This document shows positions 3,788-23,021 of a stretch of 64,000 bases of DNA, piece by piece; the stretch's first letter is position 1, and each line of letters begins with the position of its first letter. The position numbers and the translations under genes are program-made. This DNA comes from Jidongwangia harbinensis (GTDB lineage: Bacteria > Actinomycetota > Actinomycetes > Mycobacteriales > Micromonosporaceae): contig NZ_JAIWNC010000009.1 of NCBI RefSeq assembly GCF_020216025.1, positions 186,001 to 250,000 of the forward strand, given 5' to 3'. The notes beneath the pieces are model-generated. The model was not told the DNA's origin. It saw only the letters and a list, made by a program, of their open reading frames with translations, and did not search any database.

Positions 3788-4401
3788 CCGCGGAGCCGGT
3801 ACGGATTCTGCTGGCGGACGACGAACATCTGGTCCGCGGTGCGCTGGCGGCCCTGCTGGGGCTGGAGGACGACCTGGTGGTGGTGGCGCAGGCGGCCACC
3901 GGCGGGCAGGCGCTGGCGATGGCCCGGGCGCTGCGTCCCGAGGTGGCGATCGTCGACCTGCAGCTGCCGGACATCGACGGGGTGGCGGTCGCCGCGGCCC
4001 TGCGAACCGACCTGCCGGACTGCCGGACGATGGTGGTGACCAGCCACGGCCTGCCCGGTCATCTCAAGCGGGCCCTGGCCGCCGGGGTGCGCGGGTTCCT
4101 GCCCAAGACCGTGTCCGCGGAGGTGCTGGCCACGGTCGTCCGGATCGTGCACGGCGGGGGCCGGTACGTCGATCCGCAGCTCGCCGCGGAGGCGATCAGC
4201 GCCGGGGACAGCCCGCTGACCGTCCGCGAGGCGGAGGTGCTCGACCTGGCGGCGGGCGGCGCGCCGGTGGAGGACATCGCGCGGCTGGCGGCGCTGTCGC
4301 CGGGCACGGTGCGCAACTACCTGTCGTCGGCGGTGGGCAAGCTGGGTGCGGCCAACCGGCACGACGCGGTACGCATCGCCCGGGGTTACGGCTGGATCTG
4401 A
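3784..4401 (+). CDS. LuxR/NarL-family response regulator
   Basis: This 205-residue protein starts at GTG 3784 within the stop of the kinase gene (GTGA overlap), so it is translationally coupled to it. The receiver domain has the acidic pair D12-D13, the phospho-acceptor D58 in AIVDLQLPDIDG, the switch Thr in VVTSHG and the conserved Lys in LPKT. The C-terminal GerE-type helix-turn-helix spans about residues 140-200, with LTVREAEVL and a GTVRNYLSS recognition region. It resembles DesR-type regulators. Its 3' end overlaps the convergent dehydratase gene by 16 bases. Targets could be the upstream hydrolase or the neighbouring glycan cluster, but no operator was identified. Confidence 0.92.
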   Translation: MTAEPVRILLADDEHLVRGALAALLGLEDDLVVVAQAATGGQALAMARALRPEVAIVDLQLPDIDGVAVAAALRTDLPDCRTMVVTSHGLPGHLKRALAAGVRGFLPKTVSAEVLATVVRIVHGGGRYVDPQLAAEAISAGDSPLTVREAEVLDLAAGGAPVEDIARLAALSPGTVRNYLSSAVGKLGAANRHDAVRIARGYGWI

Positions 4402-6251
4402 AGCTGCAGCGGCACGGTGTCGTCGGGGGACTGGGCCGGGATCAGGGCGACGTCGCACAGCCGGGCCAGCTCGGCGGTCAGCGCGCCGGGATCCGCGTAC
4501 GGGTTGAGCAGCCGGACTCGGTCCGGGTCGAGCGGCGGCACCGGCACGTGCGAGATCGCGGGGTGCAGCGGCCGGACGTCCCGTTCCCCGGCGCCGAACA
4601 GGTCCTCGTGCAGCTTCTCGCCGGGCCGGAGCCGGCTGTACTCGATGGCCACCGGTTCGGGGGCGAGGTCGGCCATCTGCCGGGCCAGTTCGGCGATCCG
4701 GACCGGCTTGCCCATCTCCAGGACCAGCGCCTCGCCGTCGCGTCCGATGGCGGCGGCCTGGATCACCAGCTGCACGGCCTCCTGGACGGTCATCAGGTAC
4801 CGGGTGACGTCGGGGTGGGTGACGGTGATCGGCCCGCCCGCGCTGATCTGGGCGCTGAACGCGGTCAGGACCGAGCCCCGGCTGCCCAGTACGTTGCCGA
4901 ACCGGACACTGAGGAACGTGCCGGGGCTGACCCGGGCGGTGTGCGCGGTGAGCCGCTCGGTGATCCGCTTGGAGTAGCCGAGCACGCTGATCGGGTCGGC
5001 GGCCTTGTCGGTGGAGATGTTGACGAACTTCTCCACGGCGCGGGCCGCCTCCAGCACGTCGAGCGTGCCCCACACGTTGGTGCGCAGCGCCTCGGACGGG
5101 TAGCGCTCCAGCAGCGGCAGGTGTTTCAGCGCGGCGGCGTGGAAGACGACCTGCGGCCGCCGGGTCTCGAAGATCTGGTGAATGGTCTCGGCGTCGCGCA
5201 GGTCGGCCAGGATGATCGAGGCGTCGTCGAGCAGGGCGCGCCCGTGCAGGGAGAGCTGGACGGCGTGCAGGGCGGACTCGTCCCGGTCGAGCATCAGCAG
5301 CTCGGCCGGCCGCAGCCGGTGGATCTGCCGGCACAGCTCGGAACCGATCGAGCCGCCGGCGCCGAGGACGAGCACCCGCTTGCCGGTGAGGTAGCCGGCG
5401 ATGGCGTCCATGTCGGTGTCGATCTCGTGGCGTCCGAGCAGGTCGCTGATCTGGACGTCGCGTACGTCGGCGACGTCGGCCGGGCGGCTGATCAGCTCGC
5501 TGACCGACGGCACCATCTTGAACTCGGCGCCGGCCCGCAGGGTGCGGTCGCGGATGTCGCGGATCAGTGCCGCTTCCGCGTTGGCGACGCAGAAGACCAC
5601 CGTGGTGGCCCCGGTCGACTGGAGGCCGGCGGGCAGGTCGTGCCGGCCGCCCAGCACGGGTACGCCGTAGGCCCGCAGGTGTCGCTTGTCCGGGTCGTCG
5701 TCGATGAGCCCGACCGGCAGGTAGGCGCTCTGCGGGTGGGTCAGCATCGAGCGGAGCACGCTGACGCCGGCCGCTCCGGCCCCGTACAGCAGGACGGGCG
5801 TGGCGGTGCTCGGGTCGGGGCGGCGGGTCCGCTCCCGGTAGGCCCGGCGCAGGTAGCGCGCGCTGAGCATGAGGACGAGCGCGATGACGCCGCCGAGGAC
5901 GGGGGTGCTGGCGGGCACCAGCCGTTCCGGCGCCACGAGGTCGACGGCGAGCAGCGCGGCGGCGGCCAGCAGCACGGTGCCGGTGACCGCGCGGACCTCG
6001 TCGAAGCTGCCGTACCGGTACCGGCCGCGGTAGAGGTATTCGAGGTGGCCGAGGACGCCGTGCAGTCCGACCACGAGGCCGGCGGCCACGGCGGCGGCGG
6101 CCAGCTGGTCGCCGGTGAGGGTCAGCTCGTAGCGGGTGAGCACGGCGAGCAGGATTCCGGCCGTCCAGGCGGCCGCGTCGGTCACCAGGGGTACGAGGCG
6201 TCGCCACCGAGGCACCCGGGCCGGTGTGGACGTCGTGTCGTTGGCCGGCAC
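4386..6251 (-). CDS. Membrane NDP-sugar 4,6-dehydratase (PglF/CapD/WbpM family)
   Basis: The 621-residue protein starts at GTG 6251 behind AGGAG. Four N-terminal membrane helices (about residues 18-120) are followed by a CoA-binding-like Rossmann region. The catalytic extended SDR domain starts near residue 285 with the nucleotide motif GAGGSIGSE. The STDKA segment and GYSKR replace the classical YxxxK catalytic layout in the way this family does, and RFGNVLGSRGSV is diagnostic. Family members convert UDP-GlcNAc to a 4-keto-6-deoxy sugar at the membrane. Aminotransferase, PglC-like and PglD-like genes lie nearby, so it probably begins a UDP-diNAc-trideoxyhexose (bacillosamine-type) pathway. 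It is transcribed divergently from the tyrosine kinase gene. Confidence 0.88.
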   Translation of the reverse strand: MPANDTTSTPARVPRWRRLVPLVTDAAAWTAGILLAVLTRYELTLTGDQLAAAAVAAGLVVGLHGVLGHLEYLYRGRYRYGSFDEVRAVTGTVLLAAAALLAVDLVAPERLVPASTPVLGGVIALVLMLSARYLRRAYRERTRRPDPSTATPVLLYGAGAAGVSVLRSMLTHPQSAYLPVGLIDDDPDKRHLRAYGVPVLGGRHDLPAGLQSTGATTVVFCVANAEAALIRDIRDRTLRAGAEFKMVPSVSELISRPADVADVRDVQISDLLGRHEIDTDMDAIAGYLTGKRVLVLGAGGSIGSELCRQIHRLRPAELLMLDRDESALHAVQLSLHGRALLDDASIILADLRDAETIHQIFETRRPQVVFHAAALKHLPLLERYPSEALRTNVWGTLDVLEAARAVEKFVNISTDKAADPISVLGYSKRITERLTAHTARVSPGTFLSVRFGNVLGSRGSVLTAFSAQISAGGPITVTHPDVTRYLMTVQEAVQLVIQAAAIGRDGEALVLEMGKPVRIAELARQMADLAPEPVAIEYSRLRPGEKLHEDLFGAGERDVRPLHPAISHVPVPPLDPDRVRLLNPYADPGALTAELARLCDVALIPAQSPDDTVPLQLQIQP

Positions 6252-6408
6252 ATGTACTCCTCTGCGGTCGAACGGTCGCGGCAGCCCCTTTCAGGTGCGA
6301 CGTTATAGAACTACCGATTTATTGGTTATGAAATGGAGAAAGTATCCCGAGGACTGTTCGTCCGCTTATATGTTCGGTGCGAAGATTCGCCCCATCCGCG
6401 GAGGTCAC
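6252..6408. promoter_or_regulatory. Divergent promoter region of the glycan cluster
   Basis: These 157 bases separate the dehydratase (minus) and tyrosine-kinase (plus) genes. The middle part, around 6300-6350, is clearly richer in A/T than its surroundings, with TTATAGAACT and TTTATTGGTTATG stretches, as expected for divergent promoters. A GGAGG ribosome-binding site at 6400-6404 fixes the kinase start at 6409. Exact -35/-10 elements cannot be assigned with confidence. Confidence 0.4.
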
Positions 6409-7875
6409 ATGGAACTCAAGAACTACCTACGTGTGGCGCGGAAGCGATGGTGGATGCTGCTGCTCGGGGTGGTGGCGAGCTGCTCCCTGGTCGGCGTCGT
6501 CACCGCGCAGATGTCCCCGCAGTACGCGACGTCCGTGACGTTCTTCATCACCACCCCCAATTCCGGCGTGACCGATGCGTACCAGGGCGGGCTGTTCTCG
6601 CAGCAGCGGGTGAAGTCGTACGCCACGCTGCTCACCGGCGACCGGCTGGCCATCGCGGTCGCCGCCGAACCGGCGGTCGGGCTCACCGCGGCGGAGGTCC
6701 GGGACCGGGTCTCGGCCCGGGCGCTGCCCGAGACCGTGCTGCTGGAGGCCACCGTAACCGACGGTTCGGCCGCCCGGGCGGACCTCGTCGCCGCGGTGCT
6801 CGCCCGCCAGTTCACCACCATGGTGGAGTCGCTGGAGACCCCGCGCGGCAAGGCCGACTCGCCGGTCAAGGTGGAGGTGGTAGCCGGGCCGCAGAGCAGC
6901 GGCGGGCCGGTCTCGCCGCAGCCGGTCCGCAACCTGGTGCTGGCCGCGCTGTTCGGCCTGCTGGCCGGGGCGGCCGCCGCGACGCTGCGCGAGGTGCTCG
7001 ACACCACGGTGAAGTCGCCCGAGGCGCTGCACGACCTGGCCACCGCGCCGGTGCTGGCCCGGGTGCCGTTCGACGCGGACGCCCGGTCGCGGTCGCTGAC
7101 GTTCGGCACCGGTGGGCACTCCGCCCGCGCCGAGGCGCTGCGTCAGCTGCGCACCAATCTCCAGTTCGTGGACGTGGACCGGCCGGTGAAGACGCTGGTG
7201 GTGACCAGCGCCGTCCCGGGCGAGGGCAAGTCCTCGACGGCCTGCGGCCTGGCCATCCTGTTCGCCGAGGCCGGACAGCGGGTCCTGATCATCGACGCCG
7301 ACCTGCGCCGCCCGCGGATCGCCGAGTACCTCGACCTGGAGGGCGCGGTCGGGCTGACCACCGTGCTCGCCGGCCGGGCCTCCGCCGAGGACGTGCTGCA
7401 GCGCTGGGGCGACGGCCTGTGGGTGCTGCCCAGCGGCTCGCTGCCGCCGAACCCGAGCGAGCTGCTCGGCTCGAGGCACATGGGCGAGCTGCTGGACGCC
7501 TTCCGCGAGCAGTTCGACATGGTGATCGTGGACTGCCCGCCGCTGCTGCCGGTGACCGACGGCGCGGTCGTCGCGGCCCGCGCGGACGGTGCGTTGCTGC
7601 TCGCCCGGTCGCACAAGACGACCAGTTCGCAGGTGCAGACCGCGGTGCGGGCCCTGCAGTCCGTCGACGCCCGGCTGCTGGGCTGCGTCTTCAACATGGT
7701 CTCCACCAAGGGCCCCGAGGGCTACTACTACGAGCAGTACTCGGTGAAGACCCCGGCGGCCCGCCGCGGCGCGCACAGCCGGACCACCGACGACACCGCG
7801 CTGCGTGACCTGATGGCGGTCGCCGGCCGGCCCCCGGCCCAGCCGGCGGACACCGTCATCGGCGCGGGACGATGA
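6409..7875 (+). CDS. Polysaccharide co-polymerase fused to tyrosine autokinase (Wzc/CpsCD type)
   Basis: The 488-residue protein starts at ATG 6409, eight bases after GGAGG. A Wzz-type N-terminal half has membrane helices at about residues 14-36 and 172-192 around a short external loop. The C-terminal BY-kinase domain has Walker A PGEGKSS (K274), the Walker A' motif VLIIDADLRRPR and a Walker B MVIVDCPP. The tail carries a tyrosine cluster, EGYYYEQY, the usual autophosphorylation site. Such proteins control chain length and export of surface polysaccharide. The phosphatase gene on the other strand overlaps its last 20 bases and is its obvious counterpart. The start was chosen for its ribosome-binding site; the frame is open further upstream. 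Confidence 0.92.
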   Translation: MELKNYLRVARKRWWMLLLGVVASCSLVGVVTAQMSPQYATSVTFFITTPNSGVTDAYQGGLFSQQRVKSYATLLTGDRLAIAVAAEPAVGLTAAEVRDRVSARALPETVLLEATVTDGSAARADLVAAVLARQFTTMVESLETPRGKADSPVKVEVVAGPQSSGGPVSPQPVRNLVLAALFGLLAGAAAATLREVLDTTVKSPEALHDLATAPVLARVPFDADARSRSLTFGTGGHSARAEALRQLRTNLQFVDVDRPVKTLVVTSAVPGEGKSSTACGLAILFAEAGQRVLIIDADLRRPRIAEYLDLEGAVGLTTVLAGRASAEDVLQRWGDGLWVLPSGSLPPNPSELLGSRHMGELLDAFREQFDMVIVDCPPLLPVTDGAVVAARADGALLLARSHKTTSSQVQTAVRALQSVDARLLGCVFNMVSTKGPEGYYYEQYSVKTPAARRGAHSRTTDDTALRDLMAVAGRPPAQPADTVIGAGR

Positions 7876-8446
7876 TCGCCGCGAGGTCGGTGACCAGCCG
7901 GTCGATCTCCGTGCCGCAGCGCCGGAAGCCCTCGATCGGCTGGCGTACCGGGTCCGCGATCTCGTCCTGTCCGGCCGGCGGCGCCGGCAGCTGGCCGCGC
8001 ATCATCGGGATCCGCTCGACCAGCTCGCGCAGCCGCCCGGCCGGGTCGGTGGCGGCCAGCGGGCCGACCGCCACCACCTGCCCGGCGAGCCGGGCGAACT
8101 GGGGCAGCGTGAACGTCCGCTTCACCGCGGCCGGCTGCATCAGCACGGCTGCCGCGCGCTGCTCGCGGGCCGCGGTGAGCACCACGTCGGCGCGGGTGAC
8201 CGCCGCGGGGTTCAGCCGCCGGGTCCGGAAGTCGCTGACGTCGGCGCCGCGCTCCCGGAGGATGCCGATCGCGAACGGGTGCATCGGCTGGTCCGCCCAC
8301 GCATCGGTGCCGGCGCTCTGCACCTCGACGGCTCCGGCGCCGTCGTCCAGCCGGGCATCGACGGCGCGCCGGAACAGGTGTTCCGCCATGGGTGACCGGC
8401 ACAGGTTGGCGTGGCAGACGAACAGGACGGTGAGGCTGGCAGTCAC
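7856..8446 (-). CDS. Low-molecular-weight protein-tyrosine phosphatase
   Basis: The 196-residue protein starts at GTG 8446 behind GGAGAG. The active-site P-loop near the N-terminus reads VCHANLCRS, giving C11-X5-R17 as required for cysteine phosphatases. The SAGTDAW segment after it is typical of Wzb/Ptp-type enzymes. The family's C-terminal catalytic Asp-Pro is probably in the IADPV segment. It should dephosphorylate the tyrosine cluster of the adjacent autokinase, which resets polysaccharide assembly. At about 196 residues it is somewhat longer than the roughly 150-residue minimal family. It overlaps the kinase gene tail-to-tail by 20 bases and diverges from the aminotransferase gene. Confidence 0.9.
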   Translation of the reverse strand: MTASLTVLFVCHANLCRSPMAEHLFRRAVDARLDDGAGAVEVQSAGTDAWADQPMHPFAIGILRERGADVSDFRTRRLNPAAVTRADVVLTAAREQRAAAVLMQPAAVKRTFTLPQFARLAGQVVAVGPLAATDPAGRLRELVERIPMMRGQLPAPPAGQDEIADPVRQPIEGFRRCGTEIDRLVTDLAAIIVPRR

Positions 8447-8521
8447 GGGTGGCTCTCCTCTTGCCGCGGGGCTATGGGCCGACCATAGCGTTTTGTCCGG
8501 GTTGCGACGGGTCGTACCGCG

Positions 8522-9643
8522 ATGACCGACCTGGTGTATCTCTCCGCTCCGGACGTGGGCGCGCTGGAGGAGGAGTACGTCCTCGAGGCGCTGCGCTCCG
8601 GTTGGGTCGCGCCGCTGGGCCCGGCCGTCGACGCGTTCGAGGCCGAGGTCGCCGCGCGGGTGGACGTGCCGTACGCGGTGGCGCTGGGCTCCGGCACGGC
8701 GGCCCTGCACCTCGCGCTGCTCGGCCTCGGCGTCGGGCCGGGCGACGTCGTGCTGGTGCCCACGCTGACGTTCGCCGCCACCGCCAACGCGGTGGTGTAC
8801 ACCGGCGCGGAGCCGTACTTCGTGGACAGCGAGCCGGAGACCGGCAACGTCGACCCGGACCTGGTCGACGTGGCACTGCGCAGGTTGCGCCGGGCCGGCC
8901 GCCGGGTCGCCGCCGTGCTCACCGTGGACCTGTTCGGGCGGTGTGCCGACCACGCCCGGATCGAGGCCGCGGCGGCCCGGCACGGGGTGGCCGTGGTCGA
9001 GGACGCGGCCGAGTCGTTCGGGTCGGTCCGGGACGGCCGCGCGGCGGGCTCCTTCGGCCGCGCGGCCGTGCTGTCGTTCAACGGCAACAAGGTGATGACC
9101 ACGTCCGGCGGCGGGATGCTGCTGACCGGCGACGCCACGCTCGCCGCCCGGGTGCGCTACCTCGCCACCCAGGCCCGGCAGCCGGTGGCGCACTACGAGC
9201 ACACCGAGATCGGCTACAACTACCGGCTCAGCAACCTGCTCGCCGCGCTCGGGCGGGCCCAGCTCCGCCGCCTGGACGAGATGATCGCCCGCCGCCGGTC
9301 GCTGCGCGACCGGTACGCGAAGCTGTTCGCCGGGATTCCCGGGGTGCGCCTGCTGAGCGAGGACTCGACGGAGGACAACTGCTGGCTCACCGCCGTCCTG
9401 GTCGACCCGGGCGAGACCGGCTGGTCGGCCGCCGATCTGGGCGCGCACCTGGCGGCCCGGCGGGTGGAGAGCCGTCCGATGTGGAAACCCATGCATCTGC
9501 AGCCGGTCTTCGCCGGCAGCGCCGGGGTGGTGACCGGGGTGGCCGAGCGGTTGTTCGCCACCGGCCTGGTGCTGCCCAGCGGTTCCGCGCTGACCGAGGC
9601 TCAGGTGAGCCGGGTGCTGGACGAGATCGCCGGACTCCGGTGA
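8522..9643 (+). CDS. DegT/DnrJ/EryC1/StrS sugar aminotransferase (PglE-like)
   Basis: The 373-residue PLP enzyme starts at ATG 8522. The cofactor lysine is K190 in SFNGNKVMTTSGGG, a local sequence characteristic of PglE/PseC-like aminotransferases. The GSGTAALHLALLG phosphate-binding region near residue 57 and the VVEDAAESFG motif with its PLP-ring Asp are present. It would transfer an amino group to the 4-keto carbon made by the membrane dehydratase encoded at 4386-6251. Its stop overlaps the next gene by four bases, coupling it to the sugar-transferase and acetyltransferase genes. A TAGCGT element at 8486-8491 could be a -10 hexamer. The exact nucleotide-sugar substrate is inferred from context. 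Confidence 0.9.
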   Translation: MTDLVYLSAPDVGALEEEYVLEALRSGWVAPLGPAVDAFEAEVAARVDVPYAVALGSGTAALHLALLGLGVGPGDVVLVPTLTFAATANAVVYTGAEPYFVDSEPETGNVDPDLVDVALRRLRRAGRRVAAVLTVDLFGRCADHARIEAAAARHGVAVVEDAAESFGSVRDGRAAGSFGRAAVLSFNGNKVMTTSGGGMLLTGDATLAARVRYLATQARQPVAHYEHTEIGYNYRLSNLLAALGRAQLRRLDEMIARRRSLRDRYAKLFAGIPGVRLLSEDSTEDNCWLTAVLVDPGETGWSAADLGAHLAARRVESRPMWKPMHLQPVFAGSAGVVTGVAERLFATGLVLPSGSALTEAQVSRVLDEIAGLR

Positions 9644-10251
9644 GCGGCCGCCGTCACGACCGGGCCAAGCGGGTCGTCGACGTCGCCGGGGCGACCGCCG
9701 GGCTGCTGCTCGGCGCGCCGCTGCTGGCCGCCGTGGCGCTGACCGTCGCCGTCACCATGGGCCGCCCGGTGCTGTTCCGGCAGCCGCGGGCCGGACTGGG
9801 CGGGCGTACGTTCCGGTTGATGAAGTTCCGCACCATGCGGCTCGCCGCCGCGGGCGAGGGCGTGGCGGCCGACGCGGACCGGCTGACCGCGGTCGGGCGG
9901 TTCCTGCGGTCCACCAGCCTGGACGAGCTGCCGACGCTGTGGAACGTGCTCCGCGGCGAGATGAGCCTGGTCGGTCCCCGGCCGCTGTTCGTCGACTACC
10001 TCGATCGGTACTCGCCCGAGCAGGCCCGGCGGCACGAGGTTCGTCCCGGCGTGACCGGCCTGGCCCAGGTCCGCGGCCGCAACGAGCTGTCCTGGCCGGA
10101 ACGCTTCATGCTCGACGTCTGGTACGTCGACCACCGCACCCCGGCCCTGGACCTGTGGATCCTGCTGCGCACGGTCGGCGTGGTGCTGCGCCGCGAGGGC
10201 ATCTCCGCCGCCGGGGCCGCCACCGCGCCCGAGTTCACCGGCGACCGCTGA
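9640..10251 (+). CDS. Initiating phosphosugar transferase (PglC-like, bacterial sugar transferase)
   Basis: A 203-residue monotopic membrane enzyme starts at GTG 9640 and overlaps the aminotransferase stop (GTGA). One N-terminal hydrophobic hairpin (about residues 14-36) precedes the catalytic domain, so it is the small PglC form rather than the large WbaP/WcaJ form. Family motifs are KRVVDVAGA, LMKFRTMR, the SLDELPTLWNVLRGEMSLVG block (catalytic D-E pair) and RPGVTGLAQVRGRN. It should transfer a phosphosugar from an NDP-sugar to undecaprenyl phosphate and so start assembly of the repeat unit. Its length and the flanking PglE- and PglD-like genes support a bacillosamine-type donor. Confidence 0.92.
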   Translation: MSGRRHDRAKRVVDVAGATAGLLLGAPLLAAVALTVAVTMGRPVLFRQPRAGLGGRTFRLMKFRTMRLAAAGEGVAADADRLTAVGRFLRSTSLDELPTLWNVLRGEMSLVGPRPLFVDYLDRYSPEQARRHEVRPGVTGLAQVRGRNELSWPERFMLDVWYVDHRTPALDLWILLRTVGVVLRREGISAAGAATAPEFTGDR

Positions 10252-10252
10252 C

Positions 10253-10879
10253 GTGGACGGCGCCCTGGTGGTGGTCGGCTGTGGTGGGCACGGCCGGGAG
10301 ATCGCCGGTCTGGTCCGCGCCGAGGGCCGGTGGGAGCCCGCCGGGTTCGTCGACGACGGCCCGGCCCCGGACAACCTGGCCCGTCTCGCCCGGCTCGGCA
10401 TCCCCTTCCTGGGCGGACTGGACCGTCTGGCCCGGACCGGTCCGGACACCCGGTACGTGCTCGGCATCGGGGACCCGCGGGTGCGGCGCGCGGTGGCCGC
10501 CCGGGTGGACGCCCACGGCCTGCGCCCGGCCACGGTCGTGCATCCGGCCGCCACCGTCGGCGCGGAGGTGGACCTGGCCGAGGGTGTGGTGCTGTTCGCC
10601 GGTGCGCGGGTGACCACGAACGTGACGCTCGGCCGGCACACCCACCTCAACCAGAACGCCACCGTGGGGCACGACAGCGTGCTCGGCGCCTACGTGACCG
10701 TCGGCCCGCTGGCGGCCGTGTCCGGCACCTGCCGGATCGGCGACGGAGTGCTGATCGGCACCACGGCGGCGGTGTTGCAGGGGCTGACCGTCGGCGCGGA
10801 CGCCACGGTGGGCGCGGGCGCCTGCGTCACCCGGGACGTACCGCCCGGGGTCGTGGTGAAGGGCGTGCCGGCGCGCTGA
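10253..10879 (+). CDS. Sugar O/N-acetyltransferase (NeuD/PglD-like, left-handed beta-helix)
   Basis: The 208-residue protein starts at GTG 10253, one base after the preceding stop. Residues 1-85 form a small Rossmann-like domain with the GCGGHGREIAGL signature that binds the nucleotide sugar. Residues 90-208 show hexapeptide repeats of a left-handed parallel beta-helix. The NQNATVGHDSVLG stretch carries the histidine that acts as base in PglD. It most probably acetylates the new 4-amino group using acetyl-CoA, completing a UDP-2,4-diacetamido sugar. Its last 190 bases lie opposite the 3' extension of the convergent glycosyltransferase reading frame. Confidence 0.88.
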   Translation: MDGALVVVGCGGHGREIAGLVRAEGRWEPAGFVDDGPAPDNLARLARLGIPFLGGLDRLARTGPDTRYVLGIGDPRVRRAVAARVDAHGLRPATVVHPAATVGAEVDLAEGVVLFAGARVTTNVTLGRHTHLNQNATVGHDSVLGAYVTVGPLAAVSGTCRIGDGVLIGTTAAVLQGLTVGADATVGAGACVTRDVPPGVVVKGVPAR

Positions 10880-12030
10880 GCGGCGGTCCGCTCGATGTTC
10901 GCGGCCAGCCGGTCCGCCGCCCGGCGGCTGTCGAACAGCTCGACCGTGCGCCGCCGGACGCGGTGTCCCCGGGCGGCCAGGGTGCCCGCCGTGAACTCGG
11001 CGTGGGCCGCCTCCAGCGCGTCCACCAACGGGCCGGGGTCGCCCCGCGGCACCACCCAGCCGGTGTCGGAGTCCACGGTCTCGGGCAGGCCGCCGGCGTC
11101 GCTGACGATGCTCGGCAGGCCCATCGAACCGGCCTCGACGGCGGCGCCGTGCCCCTCCGACAGCGACGGGCTCACGCTGACGTCGGCGGCCGTGTACGGC
11201 AACCGGACGTCGGTGGTGGAGTCGAGCCAGACCACGTCGGTCCGGTGGTCGATGCCGAACCGCGCGATCAGCTCGGCCCGGTGTGCCTGGCCGGCCGGTC
11301 CCCATCCGCCGCCGACGAGCAGCAGCTGCGCCTCCGGATGCCGGGCGGCGAACGTGTCCCACGCGGTCAGCAGCACGTCGTGACCCTTGATGCCCCGGCC
11401 CCGGTGCACCAGTCCCCGGGGCGGATAGACGAACGCGACCAGGATGGCGACGAACGCGTCGGCGCGCAGGCCCAGTTCGGCGCGGGCGGCCCGGCGGGTG
11501 GTGGGCGGTCCGGCCGGGTCGAAGTGGTCGGTGTCCACGCCGTAGGTGATGACCGTCCGCTGGGCGGGCGGGCAGCCGATCTCCTGGTACAGCCGGGAGG
11601 TGGCCGCGGTGCCGCAGACGGTCAGGTCGTCGAGCCGCCAGAGGTGGCGCTCGACGGACCGGATCAGCGGGGACTCCAGGAAGAGCGGGCCGGCGATCAT
11701 GTGGACCCGGGCGGCGGGCAGGCCGAGCGTGGTGATCCGGGTGGCCAGCGCGGAGGCGTACAGGTGGTAGAGCACGGCGTCCGGGCGCAGCTCGCGGAGC
11801 AGCCGGCGCAGCCGCCACAGGCCGGTGACGGTGGACGGGGCGGGCCGGAAGGAGAAGCCGAACGGCGACTCGGCGATTGCCACGTCACGTTCGCGCAGCG
11901 CCCGGGTGAGCCGGCCGGGTCCGGGCGGCAGCACGACGGTGACGTCGTGCCCGCGGGCGCGCAGCGATTCGACCTGCGGGACGACCCACATGCCGCCGAC
12001 ATTGGTCTTGAGCACCACGGCAACTCGCAC
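10690..12030 (-). CDS. GT4-family glycosyltransferase with unusual 3' overlap
   Basis: The protein has 446 residues from GTG 12030, chosen because VRVAVVLKTNVGG begins the usual first beta strand; an in-frame ATG lies at 12060. The N-terminal half binds the acceptor. The C-terminal GT-B half has a GRGIKGHDVLL donor region and the EGHGAAVEAGSMGLPSIVSDAGG block with the E-x7-E pattern of GT4 retaining enzymes. Substrates are unknown. The recognisable domain stops near 10875. The frame then runs about 60 further residues (Pro, Thr and Ser rich) antisense to the acetyltransferase gene before the stop at 10690. Either the overlap is real or a frameshift hides an earlier stop. Confidence 0.82.
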   Translation of the reverse strand: MRVAVVLKTNVGGMWVVPQVESLRARGHDVTVVLPPGPGRLTRALRERDVAIAESPFGFSFRPAPSTVTGLWRLRRLLRELRPDAVLYHLYASALATRITTLGLPAARVHMIAGPLFLESPLIRSVERHLWRLDDLTVCGTAATSRLYQEIGCPPAQRTVITYGVDTDHFDPAGPPTTRRAARAELGLRADAFVAILVAFVYPPRGLVHRGRGIKGHDVLLTAWDTFAARHPEAQLLLVGGGWGPAGQAHRAELIARFGIDHRTDVVWLDSTTDVRLPYTAADVSVSPSLSEGHGAAVEAGSMGLPSIVSDAGGLPETVDSDTGWVVPRGDPGPLVDALEAAHAEFTAGTLAARGHRVRRRTVELFDSRRAADRLAANIERTAAQRAGTPFTTTPGGTSRVTQAPAPTVASAPTVSPCNTAAVVPISTPSPIRQVPDTAASGPTVT

Positions 12031-12084
12031 TCCAGCACGGTAGGCCGGAAAACGGATCAAAGTTCCTGAAACGGCTGATACCGC

Positions 12085-14502: not shown

Positions 14503-15456
14503 ATGCGACTGCTGGTCACCGGTGGTGCCGGTTTCATCGGATCCAACCTGGTTCGCGCCGCAACCGCCGACGCGGCGATCAGCGACGTCCGGATCATCGA
14601 CGACTTCTCCACCGGGCTCGCGGCCAACCTGACCGGCCTCGACGCCGAACTGGTCACCGGGTCCATTCTGGACGATGCCGCACTGGACCGCGCGATGGCC
14701 GGATGCGACGCCGTCGTCCACCTCGCCGCCCTGCCGAGCGTGCCCCGGTCGGTGCGCGATCCGCTCGCCTCGCACGCCGCGAACGCCACCGGCACGCTGC
14801 GGGTGCTGGAGGCCGCCCGCCGGCACGACGCCGGCCACGTCGTGGTCGCCTCCTCGTCCTCGGTGTACGGCGCCAACCCGGTGCTGCCCAAGCCGGAACT
14901 GGCCTGGACCCGGCCGCTCAGCCCGTACTCGGTGAGCAAGCAGGCCACCGAGGCGTACGCGCTGGCGTACCAGAGCACATACGGTCTGGCCACGCTCGCG
15001 TTCCGGTTCTTCAACGTGTACGGCCCGGGCCAACGGCACGACCACCCGTACGCCGCCGTCATCCCGCGGTTCGTCCACGCGGCACTCACCGGCGCCCCGG
15101 CGACCGTGCAGGGCGACGGACTCCAGTCCCGCGACTTCACCTACATCGACACGGTCTGCGCCGTGCTCTGCGACGCGGTCCGCCGCCGGGTCAGCGCACC
15201 GCACCCGGTGAACCTGGCGTTCGGCGTCCGGACCGACCTGATCACCGTGCTGGCCGAGCTGGAGACCATCCTCGGCCGGCCGATCGCCCGCGAGTCCGCG
15301 CCGGTGCGCCCCGGCGACGTGCGGCACTCGCAGGCCGACAACGCGGCCCTGCGCGGGCTGTTCCCGGCGGCCGCCCCGCATCCGCTGGACGCCGGCCTGC
15401 GCGCCACCGTCGCCTGGTTCGAGGCCAACGTCGCGGTGGGCGCTCTCGCCGGCTAG
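14503..15456 (+). CDS. NAD-dependent NDP-sugar epimerase/dehydratase (GalE-like extended SDR)
   Basis: The 317-residue protein starts at ATG 14503. The NAD-binding motif is GGAGFIGSN at residues 7-15, followed by IIDDFSTG. Catalytic residues are the Ser in SSSSVYG and Y142-x3-K146 in [19 protein letters not shown] and the [10 protein letters not shown] segment match UDP-glucose/UDP-GlcNAc 4-epimerases and relatives. It would supply an epimerised nucleotide sugar for the polysaccharide. The start has no ribosome-binding site but sits behind a TANNNT hexamer. The exact substrate, and whether it epimerises or dehydrates, cannot be decided from sequence alone. Confidence 0.88.
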
Positions 15457-15488: not shown

Positions 15489-16250
15489 ATGCACGTGGTC
15501 ATCATGGCCGGCGGCAAGGGAGTGCGGCTGCGGCCGTACACCACCACGCTACCCAAGCCGCTGGTTCCGATCGGCGACAACCACGCGATCCTGGAGATCG
15601 TCCTGCACCAGCTGGCGTCCCGCGGCTTCACCCACGTGACCCTGGCGATCAACCACATGGGCTCGCTGATCCGGGCCTTCGTCGGCGACGGTTCCCGGTT
15701 CGGGCTGCGGGTGGCGTACCTGGAGGAGCAGGCCGACCTGTCCACCGCCGGACCGCTCTTCTACGCCCGGGACCACCTGCCGGAGCACTTCCTGGTGATG
15801 CACGGCGACATCCTCACCGATCTGGACTACGGCGACGTGCTGCGGACCCACCAGGCGGGTACCGCCCCGCTCACGGTCGCCACGTTCCGGCGCAGCGTGC
15901 AGATCGACTTCGGGGTGCTGGAGATCGAGGGCGGCCGGGTCGTCGAGTTCCACGAGAAGCCGACCCTCGACTACCGGGTCAACATGGGCGTCTACGGCAT
16001 CTCCCGGAGCACCATCGCGGGCTACCCGGCGGGACGGCGGTACGGCTTCGACGAACTCGTGCTGGACCTCATCGCCCGCGGCCGGATGCCCGCCGACTAC
16101 CCGTACGACGGCTACTGGCTCGACATCGGCCGGCCCGAGGACTACGACGAGGCGAACCGCTCGTTCCACCGGCTGGAGCCGTTGCTGCTGCCCACCGCGC
16201 CGCGCCCGCGCCCGGCCGGCGCGCAGCCGTCGGTGCCGGAGCCGGTGTGA
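15489..16250 (+). CDS. Sugar-1-phosphate nucleotidyltransferase
   Basis: The 253-residue protein starts at ATG 15489 behind GGGAGG. It opens with [20 protein letters not shown], the pyrophosphorylase signature that binds NTP and magnesium; the PKPLVPIGD lysine is the usual sugar-phosphate contact. Further motifs are [14 protein letters not shown] (metal-binding Asp) and a [11 protein letters not shown] segment. It lacks the long C-terminal beta-helix of GlmU-type enzymes and matches the short glucose-1-phosphate or mannose-1-phosphate nucleotidyltransferases. It should make the NDP-hexose used by the flanking epimerase genes. The next gene starts inside its stop codon, indicating coupled translation. 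Confidence 0.9.
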
Positions 16251-17239
16251 GGCGGGTCCTGCTGTTCGGCGCGTCCGGCTTCCTCGGTGCCCGGGTCCGG
16301 GCCGCGCTCGCCCCGCACGCCGAACTGACCTGTCCCGGCCGGGCCGCGTGCGACCTGCTCACCGCCGGGCCGGACGAGGTGGCCGGACTGATCCGGGCCG
16401 CCGCCCCCGACGCGGTGGTCAGCTGTGCCGGGGCGCTCGGCGGCACCCCCACCCATCTGGTGCGGGCGAACACGCTGGCCACCGCGACCCTGCTGGAGGC
16501 GATCGGCCAGGCCGCGCCGGGCGCCCGGTTCGTGCGCATCGGATCGGCCGGCGAGTACGGCCCGGTCCCGCGCGGCGCGGCGGTGTCCGAGGACGACGAC
16601 ACCCGGCCGGTCGGCCCGTACGGCGTCAGCCACCTGGCCGCGACCCGGCTGGTCGCCCTGGCCGCCGCGGCCGGTCAGGTGGACGGTGTGGCGCTGCGCG
16701 TGTTCAACCCGATCGGGCCGGGCCTGTCCGCGGAGAACGTGCTGGGCCGCGCGGCGCAGCTGCTGCGCCGGGCGCTGGCGGCCGGCGACGACCACATCGC
16801 ACTCGGCCCGCTGGACGCGTACCGCGACTTCGTGGACGTGCGCGACGTGGCCGCCGCGGTCGCGGCCGCGGTGCTCGTCCCGGCCGTGCCCCGGGCGGTC
16901 TACAACGTCGGCAGTGGGTCGGCGGTGTGCACCCGCGACGCGGTACGGCAGCTGTCCGTGATCGCCGGTTTCCCGGGCGCGGTCCGCGAGGCGGCGCCGG
17001 TGGCGGCGGCCGCGCGGTCCGCGGGCGTGCCGTGGATCCGGGCCGACGTGTCCGCGGCGGCGCGCGACCTCGGCTGGCGGCCCCGGCACGTGCTGGCCGA
17101 CACCCTGGCGGCGCTGTGGGCGGCCGCCGACCCCGGACCCGAGCAGGCCGTGCCACGGCCCGCCGCTGCAGGATTCGAAGAGAAGGAGCCGGCGTGCATT
17201 CGAGAATCGGCGTCGTGGGGCTCGGCTACGTCGGCCTGA
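16247..17239 (+). CDS. NDP-sugar SDR with Lys-to-His change at the YxxxK site
   Basis: The 330-residue protein starts at GTG 16247, overlapping the previous stop by four bases. The Rossmann motif is GASGFLGAR. The body matches NAD-dependent epimerase/dehydratases ([36 protein letters not shown]). At the catalytic site it reads YGVSH: Y125 is present but the conserved Lys is His129, which should impair classical SDR proton transfer. It may therefore be a reductase or epimerase with altered chemistry, a regulatory homolog or a decayed enzyme. The last 46 bases overlap the dehydrogenase gene. The C-terminal 25 residues lack domain character and look like read-through past the ancestral end. Confidence 0.82.
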
Positions 17240-18507
17240 CCCTGGCCGCGGTCCTGGCCGACCGGGGGTACCGGGTGCACGGCGTGGACGCCGACCCGGC
17301 CGTGCTGGACGCGCTCCGGCGCGGCCGCGCCCACAAGTTCGAACCGGGCGTCGAACAGGTCCTGGCGGCGAGCCTGGGCCGGAACTTCACGCTGGGCAGC
17401 AGCCTCTCCGCGGACCTGGACGCGGTGGTGCTCTGCGTCTCCACGCCGGTGGACCCGGTCACCCGTACCGCCGATCTGGGCAATCTGGCCGCGGCCGCCG
17501 CTGAGGTGGCGCGGTCCTGCGTGCCCGGCACCCTGGTGGTGGTGCGCAGCACGGTCCCGGTGGGCACCAGCCGCGCCGTGGTGCTGCCGCCGCTGGCCGC
17601 GGCCTGGGGGACGGTGCGCCTGGTGATGGCGCCCGAGCGCACCATCCAGGGGCAGGCGCTGCGCGAGCTGGTCGAGCTGCCGCAGGTCGTCGGCGGGCTG
17701 GACGAGGAGAGCCGGGCCGCCGGGCTGGAGCTGTTCGGCGGCGTGGCCCGCTCGGTCGTGCCGGTGTCCAGCCTGGAGACCGCCGAGCTGATCAAGCTGT
17801 CGAACAACTGCCACACCGACCTGATCTACTCGTTCGGCAACGAGGTCGCGCTGATCGCGGAGCGGCACGGGCTGGATCCGCTGGAGGTCATCCGCGGCGC
17901 CAACCTGGACTATCCGCGGCCGGACCTGGCCCGGCCCGGGTACGTCGGCGGCGGCTGCCTGTCCAAGGACCCGTACCTGATGATCGAGAGCGCGGGCGAG
18001 CGGGCGCCGTTCCTGGTGGGCGCGGCCCGCCGGCTCAACGAGTACCTGCCCGGGCACGTCGCCGACCGGGTGGTGGACCTGGTCCGGCAGGAGCGCGGGG
18101 ACGCGGCCGGCGCCCGGCTCGCCGTCCTCGGCTGGGCCTACAAGGGCTGGCCGCCCACCGACGACACCCGCGGCGCCCCGGCACCGGCGATGCTGCCGGT
18201 CTTCCGGCACGCCGGGATGACCGTGCTGGGCCACGACCCGATGGTGCCGGACGAGGTGCTGCTCGCCCAGGGCGTCCAGCCGGTCGGCCTGGACCGGGCG
18301 TTCCGCGACGCGGACGCGGTGCTGATCGTCAACGACCACCCCGACTACCGGGCCCTGCGGGTGGAGTCCTGGGTCGGCGGGGACCGGCCCGCGGTGGTCT
18401 TCGACTCGTGGCGCGTCCTCGACGAGGCGGCCGTCACCGCGGCCGGCATCCGCTACGCGGGTCTGGGGTACGCCGCCCCGCGGACCGCCGCGCGGGTGGT
18501 GGCGTGA
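17194..18507 (+). CDS. Nucleotide-sugar dehydrogenase (UDP-glucose/UDP-ManNAc DH family)
   Basis: The 437-residue enzyme starts at GTG 17194, five bases after AAGGAG, inside the 3' end of the preceding gene. Domains in order are an NAD Rossmann fold with [10 protein letters not shown], a helical dimer domain with the ELIKLSNNCHTDLIYSFGNE block, and the C-terminal sugar-binding domain. The catalytic Cys255 lies in YVGGGCLSKDP, and the assisting Lys is in LIKLSNN. It oxidises C6 of an NDP-hexose to the uronic acid in two NAD-dependent steps, so the polymer probably contains an acidic sugar. GGGCLSKD and the NNCHTD segment lean towards the WecC/WbpA-like branch, but this is not certain. Confidence 0.9.
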   Translation: MHSRIGVVGLGYVGLTLAAVLADRGYRVHGVDADPAVLDALRRGRAHKFEPGVEQVLAASLGRNFTLGSSLSADLDAVVLCVSTPVDPVTRTADLGNLAAAAAEVARSCVPGTLVVVRSTVPVGTSRAVVLPPLAAAWGTVRLVMAPERTIQGQALRELVELPQVVGGLDEESRAAGLELFGGVARSVVPVSSLETAELIKLSNNCHTDLIYSFGNEVALIAERHGLDPLEVIRGANLDYPRPDLARPGYVGGGCLSKDPYLMIESAGERAPFLVGAARRLNEYLPGHVADRVVDLVRQERGDAAGARLAVLGWAYKGWPPTDDTRGAPAPAMLPVFRHAGMTVLGHDPMVPDEVLLAQGVQPVGLDRAFRDADAVLIVNDHPDYRALRVESWVGGDRPAVVFDSWRVLDEAAVTAAGIRYAGLGYAAPRTAARVVA

Positions 18508-20278: not shown

Positions 20279-21798
20279 GCACCGTGGCCGGGCCGGCCAC
20301 CCGCGACGGTTCCGGCGACATGCTGGTGTCCGCCTGCCTGGTGGGGGCGGGCACGCTCGCGGCGGTGACGCTGGACGCCCGGCTGTGGCACTGGTTCGTG
20401 GTCCCGGTGGCGGCGTGCGGCGTGCTGATCGGCGCGGACGTGGTGGCGTGGCTGCGCGGCCGGCTGGACACCTTCGACCCGCGTGGCGTGCTGGCGGTGC
20501 TGGGCTTCCACTTCTTCTACCTGGCCCCCCTGCTGCACGTCCTGCTCGACTACTGGCCCACGCGGATCGTCCCGTCGGTGAGCTGGCCGGACGCGCTGGG
20601 CACGATGGCCGTGCTGAACGTCGCCGGCCTGATCCTCTACCGCTGGGTGGTCGCGCTGCCCGGACGTTCCGCGCCGCCGCGGGCGCGTTTCCGGGTCCGG
20701 CTGGACGAGCGCCGGTTCGTCCGGATCGTCGGCGCCGGCGTGGCGATCGGGATGCTGGCCTTCGTCGTCGTGGTGCTCCGGTTCGGCGGCGTGCTCGGGT
20801 TCCTGGCCACGGTGACCAGCGACCGGGAGGCGCTGACCGGGCTGGGCTGGCTGCTGATGACCGCCGAGATGTTCCCGATGCTGATCTTCGTGCTGATCGT
20901 GGTGCACCGGCGGCGGGCGCTGGCCGGCCGCCCGGAACTGGTGCTCCTGCTGCTGGCCGGCTTCGCGCTGGTGCAGTTCCTGGTGGGTGGCCTGCGCGGC
21001 AGCCGCAGCAACACGGTCTGGCCGGTGCTGCTCGGGCTGATGCTGGTCCACCTGCTGGTGGCCCGGGTGTCCCGCAAGGCGCTGGTGATCTTCGCGCTGG
21101 TGTTCGGGTCGTTCATGTACATCTACGGCCTGTACAAGAGCGCCGGCACGGACGTGCTGGACATCGCCCGGGGCACCCGCACGGTGGCCGAGGTCTCCGC
21201 GGAGACCGGCCGGGACGTGCCCACGATGCTGCTCGGCGACCTGGGCCGGTCGGACATCCAGGCGATCGTCCTGGATCGCAAGCGGCAGGGGCAGGGCGAT
21301 CTCGGGTACGGCCGCTCGTACGTGGGCGACGTGCTGGTGCTGGTGCCGAACCGGCTCCTGCCGGAGCGCCCGCCGAGCAAGGCGGTGTACGGCACCGAGG
21401 TCCTGATGGGCGTGGGCGCGTACGACCACCAGGCCAGCGTCGGGGCGAGCCGCATCTACGGCATCGCCGGCGAGGCCATGCTGAACTTCGGGCCGCTCGG
21501 TGCGGTGCTGTCGTTCGGCGTGCTGGGCCTGGTGATCCGCGGCGCGCAGAGGCTCTACCGCCGGGCCCGGTACGGCGACGAGCTGGGCCCGAAGATCCTC
21601 GCGCCCGCGCTGTGCCTGGCGTCGGTGCTGACGCTGACCAGCGACCTGGACAACGTGGTGGTGATGCTGGTGACCCGGTTCCTGCCGGTCGGCCTGGCGG
21701 CGTTGCTGGCCTGCGCCGTGGTGCGTCAGCCCCCGGCGGCCACCGTGGTCCGGCCGCGGGCGGCGGCGTCCCCGGTCGCCCGGCGCAACGCCCGGTAG
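20275..21798 (+). CDS. Wzy-like O-antigen/oligosaccharide repeat-unit polymerase
   Basis: About 507 residues from GTG 20275, overlapping the methyltransferase stop by four bases. The sequence is dominated by some ten to twelve membrane helices, with one large polar stretch at about residues 295-400 containing LGYGRSYVGDVLVLVPNRLLPERPP-like content. Placing the bulky loop late in the protein fits O-antigen polymerases. GGLRGSRSNT is an arginine-rich loop of the kind implicated in sugar contacts. In this cluster it is the only polymerase candidate and would join flipped repeat units outside the membrane. Its end overlaps the convergent glycosyltransferase gene by 73 bases. Confidence 0.82.
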   Translation: MSTVAGPATRDGSGDMLVSACLVGAGTLAAVTLDARLWHWFVVPVAACGVLIGADVVAWLRGRLDTFDPRGVLAVLGFHFFYLAPLLHVLLDYWPTRIVPSVSWPDALGTMAVLNVAGLILYRWVVALPGRSAPPRARFRVRLDERRFVRIVGAGVAIGMLAFVVVVLRFGGVLGFLATVTSDREALTGLGWLLMTAEMFPMLIFVLIVVHRRRALAGRPELVLLLLAGFALVQFLVGGLRGSRSNTVWPVLLGLMLVHLLVARVSRKALVIFALVFGSFMYIYGLYKSAGTDVLDIARGTRTVAEVSAETGRDVPTMLLGDLGRSDIQAIVLDRKRQGQGDLGYGRSYVGDVLVLVPNRLLPERPPSKAVYGTEVLMGVGAYDHQASVGASRIYGIAGEAMLNFGPLGAVLSFGVLGLVIRGAQRLYRRARYGDELGPKILAPALCLASVLTLTSDLDNVVVMLVTRFLPVGLAALLACAVVRQPPAATVVRPRAAASPVARRNAR

Positions 21799-22949: not shown

Positions 22950-23021
22950 GGACATTAAGGACCGGGGTGCCCGGCTTCCCGGGAACCGCGATTGTTCATC
23001 GTCACGAGGGGCGGGGCCGAC

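What the first reader, a model, noticed from the sequence alone, without database searches (positions are those of the whole stretch)
4386..10879. Set of PglF-, PglE-, PglC- and PglD-like genes: a possible bacillosamine-type pathway in an actinomycete
The membrane 4,6-dehydratase (4386-6251), the aminotransferase with SFNGNK (8522-9643), the small PglC-type initiating transferase (9640-10251) and the beta-helix acetyltransferase with GHD (10253-10879) are exactly the steps that make and load UDP-2,4-diacetamido-2,4,6-trideoxyhexose. The last three are coupled by overlap. This would make a diNAc-trideoxyhexose the first sugar of the repeat unit.
Basis: partly seen in the sequence, partly recalled or inferred. 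Interest (0 to 1): 0.55.

Follow-up and report, generated by a model that had tools for sequence, protein, structure and literature searches.

The report
Bacillosamine-type exopolysaccharide starter gene set
An actinomycete carries the four enzymes that most likely make the rare sugar bacillosamine and load it onto the membrane as the first sugar of an exopolysaccharide, as already shown in Bacillus subtilis, and much the same set recurs in other actinobacteria.

Summary
The four genes are real and well assigned. Two corrections: the dehydratase (4386-6251) lies on the minus strand, and only the aminotransferase/transferase pair overlaps (4 nt; the next junction has a 1-nt gap). The aminotransferase falls in one 100/100 clade with C. 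jejuni PglE, apart from PerA, ArnB, WecE and the genome's PseC- and WecE-like enzymes. The small initiating transferase groups with C. concisus PglC (100/95), apart from the genome's four other transferases. The dehydratase's best solved relative is C. jejuni PglF. The acyltransferase is NeuD/PglB/VioB family, nearer VioB than C. jejuni PglD. In 100 genomes the close aminotransferase and transferase orthologues co-occur: 28 of 29 against 0 of 71. Best reading: UDP-diNAc-bacillosamine synthesis and loading onto undecaprenyl phosphate, starting a Wzx/Wzy-type exopolysaccharide. The precedent is B. subtilis EpsC/N/M/L, so this is a new member of a known kind. New here: of 7 relatives lacking the acyltransferase, 4 carry an ATP-grasp ligase and 1 a GNAT/FemAB-like protein, so the 4-amine cap may be exchangeable. 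No enzyme activity or sugar was shown.

The parts
4386..6251 (-). Membrane UDP-GlcNAc 4,6-dehydratase, PglF/EpsC-like (621 aa)
   Evidence: PF02719 308.7 bits; best solved relative C. jejuni PglF/WlaL 5bju, 233 bits, against CapE 3vvb 136 and 2gn4 110; GAGGSIGSE and STDK kept
6409..7875 (+). BY-type tyrosine autokinase with an N-terminal chain-length-determinant-like region
   Evidence: scanned as 6337-7875: TIGR01007 162.7 bits over cut-off 108.05; chain-length model TIGR01006 48.7 bits, under its cut-off of 296; start
7856..8446 (-). Low-molecular-weight protein tyrosine phosphatase
   Evidence: PF01451 84.7 bits
8522..9643 (+). UDP-4-keto sugar C4-aminotransferase, PglE/EpsN-like (373 aa)
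   Evidence: in the 60-row 100/100 clade with C. jejuni PglE; SFNGNK, TQAR..HYEH and RPMWKPMH against SYNGNK, TQAR..HYEH and RPLWKAMH in C. jejuni PglE
9640..10251 (+). Small monotopic phosphoglycosyl transferase, PglC/EpsL-like (203 aa)
   Evidence: C. concisus PglC 182 bits over residues 3-201; 35-row clade 100/95; SLDELP and GPRP kept, tail GISAAGAATAPEFTG
10253..10879 (+). NeuD/PglB/VioB-family sugar N-acyltransferase, in the PglD/EpsM role (208 aa)
   Evidence: TIGR03570 206.5 bits over cut-off 160.8; PglD_N domain; VioB 117 bits, PerB 99, 4m98 93, C. jejuni PglD 49
10690..12060 (-). GT4 glycosyltransferase; its 3' end overlaps the acyltransferase gene tail to tail
   Evidence: PF13692 71.8 bits
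12097..13209 (+). GT4 glycosyltransferase
   Evidence: PF13692 87 bits
13077..14492 (+). Wzx-type flippase candidate (this ORF start overlaps the preceding gene; true start not settled)
   Evidence: PF01943 31.4 bits over cut-off 28.2
20320..21798 (+). Wzy-type polymerase candidate, 492 aa
   Evidence: no Pfam match; position and a hydrophobic look of the sequence only: inference; start chosen by me

Best explanation
The set makes UDP-N,N'-diacetylbacillosamine (or a close 4-N-acyl analogue) and loads it onto undecaprenyl phosphate. The membrane dehydratase turns UDP-GlcNAc into the 4-keto-6-deoxy sugar; the PLP enzyme aminates C4; the hexapeptide acyltransferase acylates that amine, most likely with acetyl-CoA; the small monotopic transferase moves sugar-1-phosphate to undecaprenyl phosphate. 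GT4 enzymes extend the unit, which is exported by a Wzx/Wzy-type machine controlled by the BY kinase and phosphatase. Shown here: family, clade, motifs, gene linkage and co-occurrence. Inferred: every substrate and product, and the Wzx/Wzy machine.
For: Aminotransferase tree: window and C. jejuni PglE in one 60-row clade, 100/100; motifs. Transferase tree with C. concisus PglC 100/95, outside the genome's four other PF02397 proteins. PglF as best solved relative. Co-occurrence in 100 genomes (window's own included): close aminotransferase orthologue (E at most 6e-141) in 29; transferase orthologue (E 1e-50) in 28 of these 29 and in 0 of 71 others; acyltransferase orthologue (at least 49% identity) in 22 of 29 and 0 of 71; dehydratase family (E 1e-80) in 29 of 29, and in 32 of 71 others. 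In 18 actinobacterial loci of named records the dehydratase lies in the same locus in 17, directly upstream of the aminotransferase in 13, and the transferase in 17. Separate PseB, PseC-like and PseI genes exist on contig C11. The window transferase is the only PF02397 match on its 302-kb contig. B. subtilis precedent: EpsL loads diNAcBac, for which EpsC/N/M are the proposed makers (PMC10653937; abstract, sections 3 and 9 and passages read).
Against: The acyltransferase is closer to VioB and PerB, which act on other nucleotide sugars (recalled), than to C. jejuni PglD. By raw score the aminotransferase is as near PerA (238 bits) and 7b0m (243) as PglE (239); only tree and motifs separate them. 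It stays under the LegC-family cut-off (352 against 420). Membership of the PglE clade does not always bring a PglC-type transferase: in six non-actinobacterial loci with such an aminotransferase (L075, L076, L080, L081, L087, L088) the PF02397 protein found lacks the tail and falls outside the 35-row clade, and the five same-genus group B loci (L043-L047) show no PglC, PglD or PglF match. The dehydratase is divergent and not in one transcription unit with the rest. Seven of 29 relatives with the aminotransferase lack the acyltransferase orthologue. The transferase tree has no small transferase with another known sugar as reference.
Confidence: 0.75

Rival explanations
1. Same core, but the 4-amine carries an acyl group other than acetyl (for example 3-hydroxybutyryl), so the first sugar is a bacillosamine analogue.
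For: Acyltransferase is not of the C. jejuni PglD type by score. Of 7 relatives with the same aminotransferase but no acyltransferase orthologue, 4 have an ATP-grasp ligase and 1 a GNAT/FemAB-like protein, so the cap may vary in this lineage.
Against: TIGR03570-family members with known function mostly use acetyl-CoA (recalled). The window genome has the acyltransferase and no match to the ligase at E 1e-20.
Confidence: 0.12
2. UDP-FucNAc4N (AATGal) pathway: the aminotransferase makes the axial 4-amine and the transferase is WcfS-like.
For: A dehydratase, a DegT aminotransferase and a small PglC-family transferase also start that pathway (partly recalled); WcfS uses UDP-FucNAc4N (PMC12550135, passages).
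Against: The proposed AATGal aminotransferase Spr1654 (PDB 6EWJ, PMC5936713, passages) scores 104 bits against 239 for PglE. Its His196 (His185 in ArnB, Phe in 3DR7 by that paper) falls, by the ArnB and 3DR7 rows, at the Asn of SFNGNK in the window; Spr1654 itself was not aligned. A linked N-acyltransferase is not expected for a free amine (recalled).
Confidence: 0.06
3. GDP-perosamine- or TDP-viosamine-type pathway, with the acyltransferase as a PerB/VioB.
For: VioB and PerB are the acyltransferase's best solved relatives; PerA scores as high as PglE by phmmer.
Against: Tree places PerA outside the 100/100 clade; PerA lacks the HYEH and WK.MH motifs. The linked dehydratase's best solved relative, PglF, acts on UDP-GlcNAc (substrate recalled).
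Confidence: 0.03
4. The set feeds legionaminic acid.
For: Aminotransferase's best NCBIfam model is the LegC family, 352 bits, under its cut-off of 420.
Against: The only NeuB-family match in the genome is on another contig, passes as PseI, and lies about 15 kb from PseB and a PseC-like gene. A linked PglC-type transferase takes a hexose-phosphate, not a CMP-nonulosonate (recalled).
Confidence: 0.02

Closest known systems
Bacillus subtilis EpsC/EpsN/EpsM/EpsL (epsA-O exopolysaccharide)
   Same: Same four enzyme types in a Gram-positive exopolysaccharide cluster; EpsL loads UDP-diNAcBac (PMC10653937)
   Different: No Eps protein sequence was at hand for a direct comparison; window dehydratase is divergent and separated; different downstream sugar genes. 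EpsA/EpsB as kinase pair is recalled
Campylobacter PglF/PglE/PglD/PglC (protein N-glycosylation)
   Same: C. jejuni PglF is the best solved relative of the dehydratase; same aminotransferase clade; transferase grouped with C. concisus PglC
   Different: Window cluster looks like Wzx/Wzy exopolysaccharide; no PglB oligosaccharyltransferase was looked for; acyltransferase is distant from PglD
Neisseria PglB (transferase fused to acetyltransferase; recalled)
   Same: Acyltransferase 93 bits to 4m98 'pilin glycosylation protein', which I recall as its acetyltransferase domain
   Different: Separate genes in the window; in six of 17 actinobacterial relatives the transferase has a C-terminal extension, GNAT by Pfam in two of four scanned
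Actinoplanes missouriensis wps-2 and wps-3 clusters
   Same: DegT aminotransferases in Wzx/Wzy-type clusters of what is probably the same genus; wps-3 gene order resembles that around the second aminotransferase group (L047) (PMC13390465 passages)
   Different: In the passages seen, neither cluster has this dehydratase-aminotransferase-transferase-acyltransferase set; the word dehydratase does not occur in that paper's main text

Membership tests
diNAcBac biosynthesis and loading (PglF/E/D/C; EpsC/N/M/L) | Non-inverting membrane UDP-GlcNAc 4,6-dehydratase family | tested here: met
   PF02719 over cut-off, best solved relative PglF 233 bits, well under the PseB (150 of 407.75) and FnlA (131 of 730) cut-offs. 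By score, no tree
diNAcBac biosynthesis and loading (PglF/E/D/C; EpsC/N/M/L) | C4-aminotransferase of the PglE clade | tested here: met
   100/100 clade with C. jejuni PglE; motifs shared
diNAcBac biosynthesis and loading (PglF/E/D/C; EpsC/N/M/L) | 4-N-acetyltransferase of PglD type | tested here: inconclusive
   NeuD/PglB/VioB subfamily over cut-off; nearer VioB than C. jejuni PglD
diNAcBac biosynthesis and loading (PglF/E/D/C; EpsC/N/M/L) | Small monotopic transferase with DE dyad, PRP motif and the PglC-like C-terminal tail | tested here: met
   tail absent from the genome's four other PF02397 proteins. That this tail helps predict UDP-diNAcBac is recalled; the paper (PMC10186338) was not held; a citing passage on fingerprints was read in PMC10653937
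diNAcBac biosynthesis and loading (PglF/E/D/C; EpsC/N/M/L) | Product is UDP- and Und-PP-linked diNAcBac | not testable with these tools
   needs biochemistry
AATGal/FucNAc4N pathway | Spr1654/WbgX/WcfR-type aminotransferase | tested here: not met
   104 bits to Spr1654 against 239 to PglE; Asn at the place of His196, by the ArnB and 3DR7 rows. WbgX and WcfR were not compared
GDP-perosamine pathway | Aminotransferase in the PerA clade | tested here: not met
   PerA outside the clade
Legionaminic acid pathway | Linked NeuB-type synthase | tested here: not met
   Single NeuB-family match, on contig C11, over the PseI cut-off

The most novel reading that the evidence does not exclude
In actinobacteria a fixed core (PglF-, PglE- and PglC-type enzymes) starts exopolysaccharides, while the enzyme that caps the sugar's 4-amine is an exchangeable slot: PglD-like acyltransferase, a GNAT domain fused to the transferase, a GNAT/FemAB-like protein, or an ATP-grasp ligase that could attach an amino acid. 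The starter sugar would then be a family of 4-N-acylated bacillosamines rather than diNAcBac alone.
Probability: 0.35. Interest if true: 0.6.

Novelty: new member of a known kind. Interest (0 to 1): 0.4.

Why it matters
Bacillosamine is described from Gram-negative glycans and, by enzymology and genetics, from the B. subtilis exopolysaccharide (PMC10653937). A conserved set in actinobacteria would extend it to another large Gram-positive phylum and name the first sugar of otherwise uncharacterised exopolysaccharides. The swapped capping enzymes give a direct, testable way to look for new 4-N-acyl variants.

Tried and rejected
Perosamine, AATGal and legionaminic readings were tested by tree, motifs, scores and gene content and rejected. 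The raw PDB score of the aminotransferase does not separate PglE from PerA, and SFNGNK alone does not either (7b0m has it); I relied on the tree and the other motifs. Whether bacillosamine is already reported from actinobacteria: searches for bacillosamine + actinobacteria (5 papers), for transferase network terms with Actinobacteria (15 of 265 listed), mixed terms with Actinoplanes (5 papers) and bacillosamine + Streptomyces (9 papers) listed none whose title or abstract start is about it. The library holds open-licence papers only. PMC7725333 predicts sugar pathways, bacillosamine among them, over 12,939 genomes; I saw passages only, with no per-phylum count, so predicted actinobacterial cases may already be in its tables. 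A search for ATP-grasp with QuiNAc4N or phosphoglycosyl terms showed nothing on point in the 10 of 78 listed. The A. missouriensis imp cluster, as described in passages of PMC12691653, has glycosyltransferases and membrane proteins and no such set. No structure prediction was run: sequence evidence was already strong and substrate could not be read from a fold. Two genomes with the core (G016, G031) have no capping enzyme that I could identify. The transferase tree gives no starred small set for the window.

Rows dropped: 2 of 76 aminotransferase hits by length; then 7 of 80 rows before the tree (two duplicates of E. coli ArnB and WecE, one fragment, four distant or secondary hits). For the transferase tree 3 of 46 hits (one fragment, one duplicate, one from a short contig). 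Of 19 actinobacterial loci I counted 18 (L083, a 4.8-kb contig, left out); several of the 18 are metagenome bins. Cut-offs in the co-occurrence table were set after seeing the lists. Matches under them: more distant acyltransferases (36-45% identity) bring the genomes with any match at E 1e-20 to 45 of 100; the ATP-grasp query also matches 5 of the 71 genomes without the aminotransferase orthologue, at 31-36% identity; G011 misses the transferase cut-off but has a 52% identical one beside its aminotransferase.
Full report
What is there. The window lies in a 9.74-Mb genome, contig C109, and is 71.7% G+C. The dehydratase at 4386-6251 reads on the minus strand; divergent from it is a BY-type kinase gene with a chain-length-like N-terminal region (6409-7875), then, on the minus strand, a phosphatase gene (7856-8446). 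On the plus strand follow aminotransferase 8522-9643, sugar transferase 9640-10251 (4-nt overlap) and acyltransferase 10253-10879 (1-nt gap). Further on lie two GT4 genes, a flippase candidate, three SDR epimerase-type genes (14503-15456, 16247-17239, 18507-19460), a nucleotidyltransferase (15489-16250), a UDP-glucose/GDP-mannose dehydrogenase (scanned as 17212-18507), a FkbM methyltransferase (19457-20278) and a Wzy candidate (20320-21798). By content this is a Wzx/Wzy-type exopolysaccharide cluster; Wzy has no Pfam match and is inferred.

Dehydratase. Best solved relatives are the C. jejuni PglF chains (233 bits), then CapE (136). The GAGGSIGSE and STDK motifs are kept. Where PglF has a methionine (the classical SDR tyrosine position, recalled), all 30 actinobacterial membrane-type rows with that stretch, the window included, have leucine; the 10 membrane-type rows from other phyla and C. 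jejuni PglF have methionine. The family alone does not fix the pathway: the genome has a 64% identical paralogue on C85 near a PIG-L deacetylase, a formyltransferase, an SDR-like protein, another BY kinase and a different PF02397 transferase.

Aminotransferase. Phmmer gives PglE 239, PerA 238 and 7b0m 243 bits. The tree (73 rows, IQ-TREE) separates them: a 60-row clade, 100/100, holds C. jejuni PglE and the window; 7b0m, PerA, WecE, ArnB and three paralogues of this genome (PseC-like, WecE-type and one unassigned) are outside. Within it C. jejuni PglE sits in a 23-row part (94/90) and the window in a 37-row part (93/86), so the window is kin to, not nested in, the PglE part; the tool flags C. 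jejuni PglE for unusual composition. C. jejuni PglE and the window share NGNK, TQAR..HYEH and RP.WK.MH; PerA, ArnB, WecE and the PseC-like paralogue lack the last two. 7b0m has SFNGNK but not the other two; several same-genus rows have F for the W. The proposed AATGal aminotransferase Spr1654 (6EWJ, identified in PMC5936713) gets 104 bits and has a histidine at the column where the window has asparagine, judged through ArnB and 3DR7.

Transferase and acyltransferase. C. concisus PglC aligns over residues 3-201 with 182 bits. The tree groups window, C. concisus PglC and other aminotransferase-linked transferases (35 rows, 100/95), away from the genome's four other PF02397 proteins. The PglC-like tail (GIS..G..T...F.G) is present in the window and most linked actinobacterial relatives and absent from those four; L062 lacks it. 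Against a strict pairing, six PglE-clade loci from other phyla (L075, L076, L080, L081, L087, L088) gave only PF02397 proteins outside that clade and without the tail. The acyltransferase passes the NeuD/PglB/VioB cut-off (206.5 against 160.8); best solved relatives are VioB 117, PerB 99, 4m98 93, 4m9c 88, 7l7z 72 and C. jejuni PglD 49 bits.

Linkage. In 100 genomes (the window's own, 59 others of the genus and 40 of the order) the close aminotransferase orthologue (E at most 6e-141) occurs in 29. The transferase orthologue is in 28 of these and 0 of 71 others (Fisher p 6e-24); the acyltransferase orthologue in 22 of 29 and 0 of 71 (p 2e-16). These p values ignore relatedness and the cut-offs were set after looking. 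In some genomes the acyltransferase lies far from the pair yet is present (G010, G035, G045, G051). The dehydratase family (E 1e-80) is in 61 of 100 genomes, all 29 among them, so other pathways use it too. In 18 actinobacterial loci of named records (Propionicicella, Blastococcus, Frigoribacterium, Glutamicibacter, Cryobacterium, Knoellia, Cellulomonas and others), 17 hold the dehydratase and 17 the transferase; 6 hold the acyltransferase directly beside the transferase, one of them (L051) a weak 64-bit match.

The cap slot. Of the 7 genomes with the aminotransferase but no acyltransferase orthologue, 4 have a PylC-like ATP-grasp ligase (G042, the query's own genome; G040 95%, G096 45% and G061 37% identical to it), found in 0 of the 22 with the acyltransferase (p 0.0015); 5 of the 71 other genomes have more distant matches (31-36%). 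In G042 and G096 it directly follows the transferase, in G040 one gene lies between, in G061 it is about 3 kb away. Its best solved relative is 2pn1, named 'carbamoylphosphate synthase large subunit' (108 bits), then weak D-Ala-D-Ala ligase hits. G011 has an Acetyltransf_6/FemAB-like protein downstream of its transferase. G016 and G031 show no candidate. Enteractinococcus (L060) has the ligase directly after the aminotransferase. In six of 17 actinobacterial relatives (L056, L061, L064, L065, L067, L073) the transferase is 345-374 aa; of four scanned, two have a GNAT domain over cut-off, one a sub-threshold GNAT hit and one none. That these enzymes act on the 4-amine is inference from position and mutual exclusion.

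Where it stands against the known. B. subtilis EpsL loads UDP-diNAcBac as first sugar of an exopolysaccharide; the authors call it the first evidence of bacillosamine in an exopolysaccharide of a Gram-positive (PMC10653937: abstract, sections 3 and 9, passages). The window is the same kind of system in an actinomycete. I hold the mechanism 75% likely as stated; every substrate is inferred.

Noticed in passing
L032 10964-11932; L041 11249-12223; L060 11116-12219: PylC-like ATP-grasp ligase next to the aminotransferase or transferase; for L032 and L041 the whole genomes lack the acyltransferase orthologue. Possible aminoacyl cap.
   Followed up: partly
L067 and L064 (transferases at about 11146 + and 9260 -); also L056, L061, L065, L073: Initiating transferase carries a C-terminal extension, a GNAT acetyltransferase domain over cut-off in two of four scanned.
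   Followed up: partly
L098 451-6880 and L050 14507-19800 (own contig C85): Second cluster of the same genome: 64% identical dehydratase, BY kinase, a phosphatase-like gene (by look), another PF02397 transferase, PIG-L deacetylase, formyltransferase and SDR-like protein; suggests a deacetylated or formylated 6-deoxy amino sugar.
   Followed up: partly
L097 902-1912 and 16862-18966 (own contig C11): PseI and PseB over their cut-offs, plus a PseC-like aminotransferase just under its own (399 of 423.5): a separate pseudaminic acid pathway.
   Followed up: yes
L043, L044, L045, L046, L047: Second PglE-clade aminotransferase group (54-56% identical) with no PglC-, PglD- or PglF-type match in the loci fetched; L047 has a polysaccharide deacetylase, Acetyltransf_6 and FAD-binding genes in an order resembling A. 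missouriensis wps-3.
   Followed up: partly
window 4386-6251 (-): Actinobacterial membrane dehydratases have leucine where C. jejuni PglF and other phyla have methionine (30 of 30 against 0 of 11 rows).
   Followed up: partly
window 10690-10879: The minus-strand GT4 reading frame overlaps the acyltransferase gene tail to tail by 190 nt.
   Followed up: no
window 22992-24836: DUF4012 protein (162.7 bits) just past the exopolysaccharide cluster.
   Followed up: no
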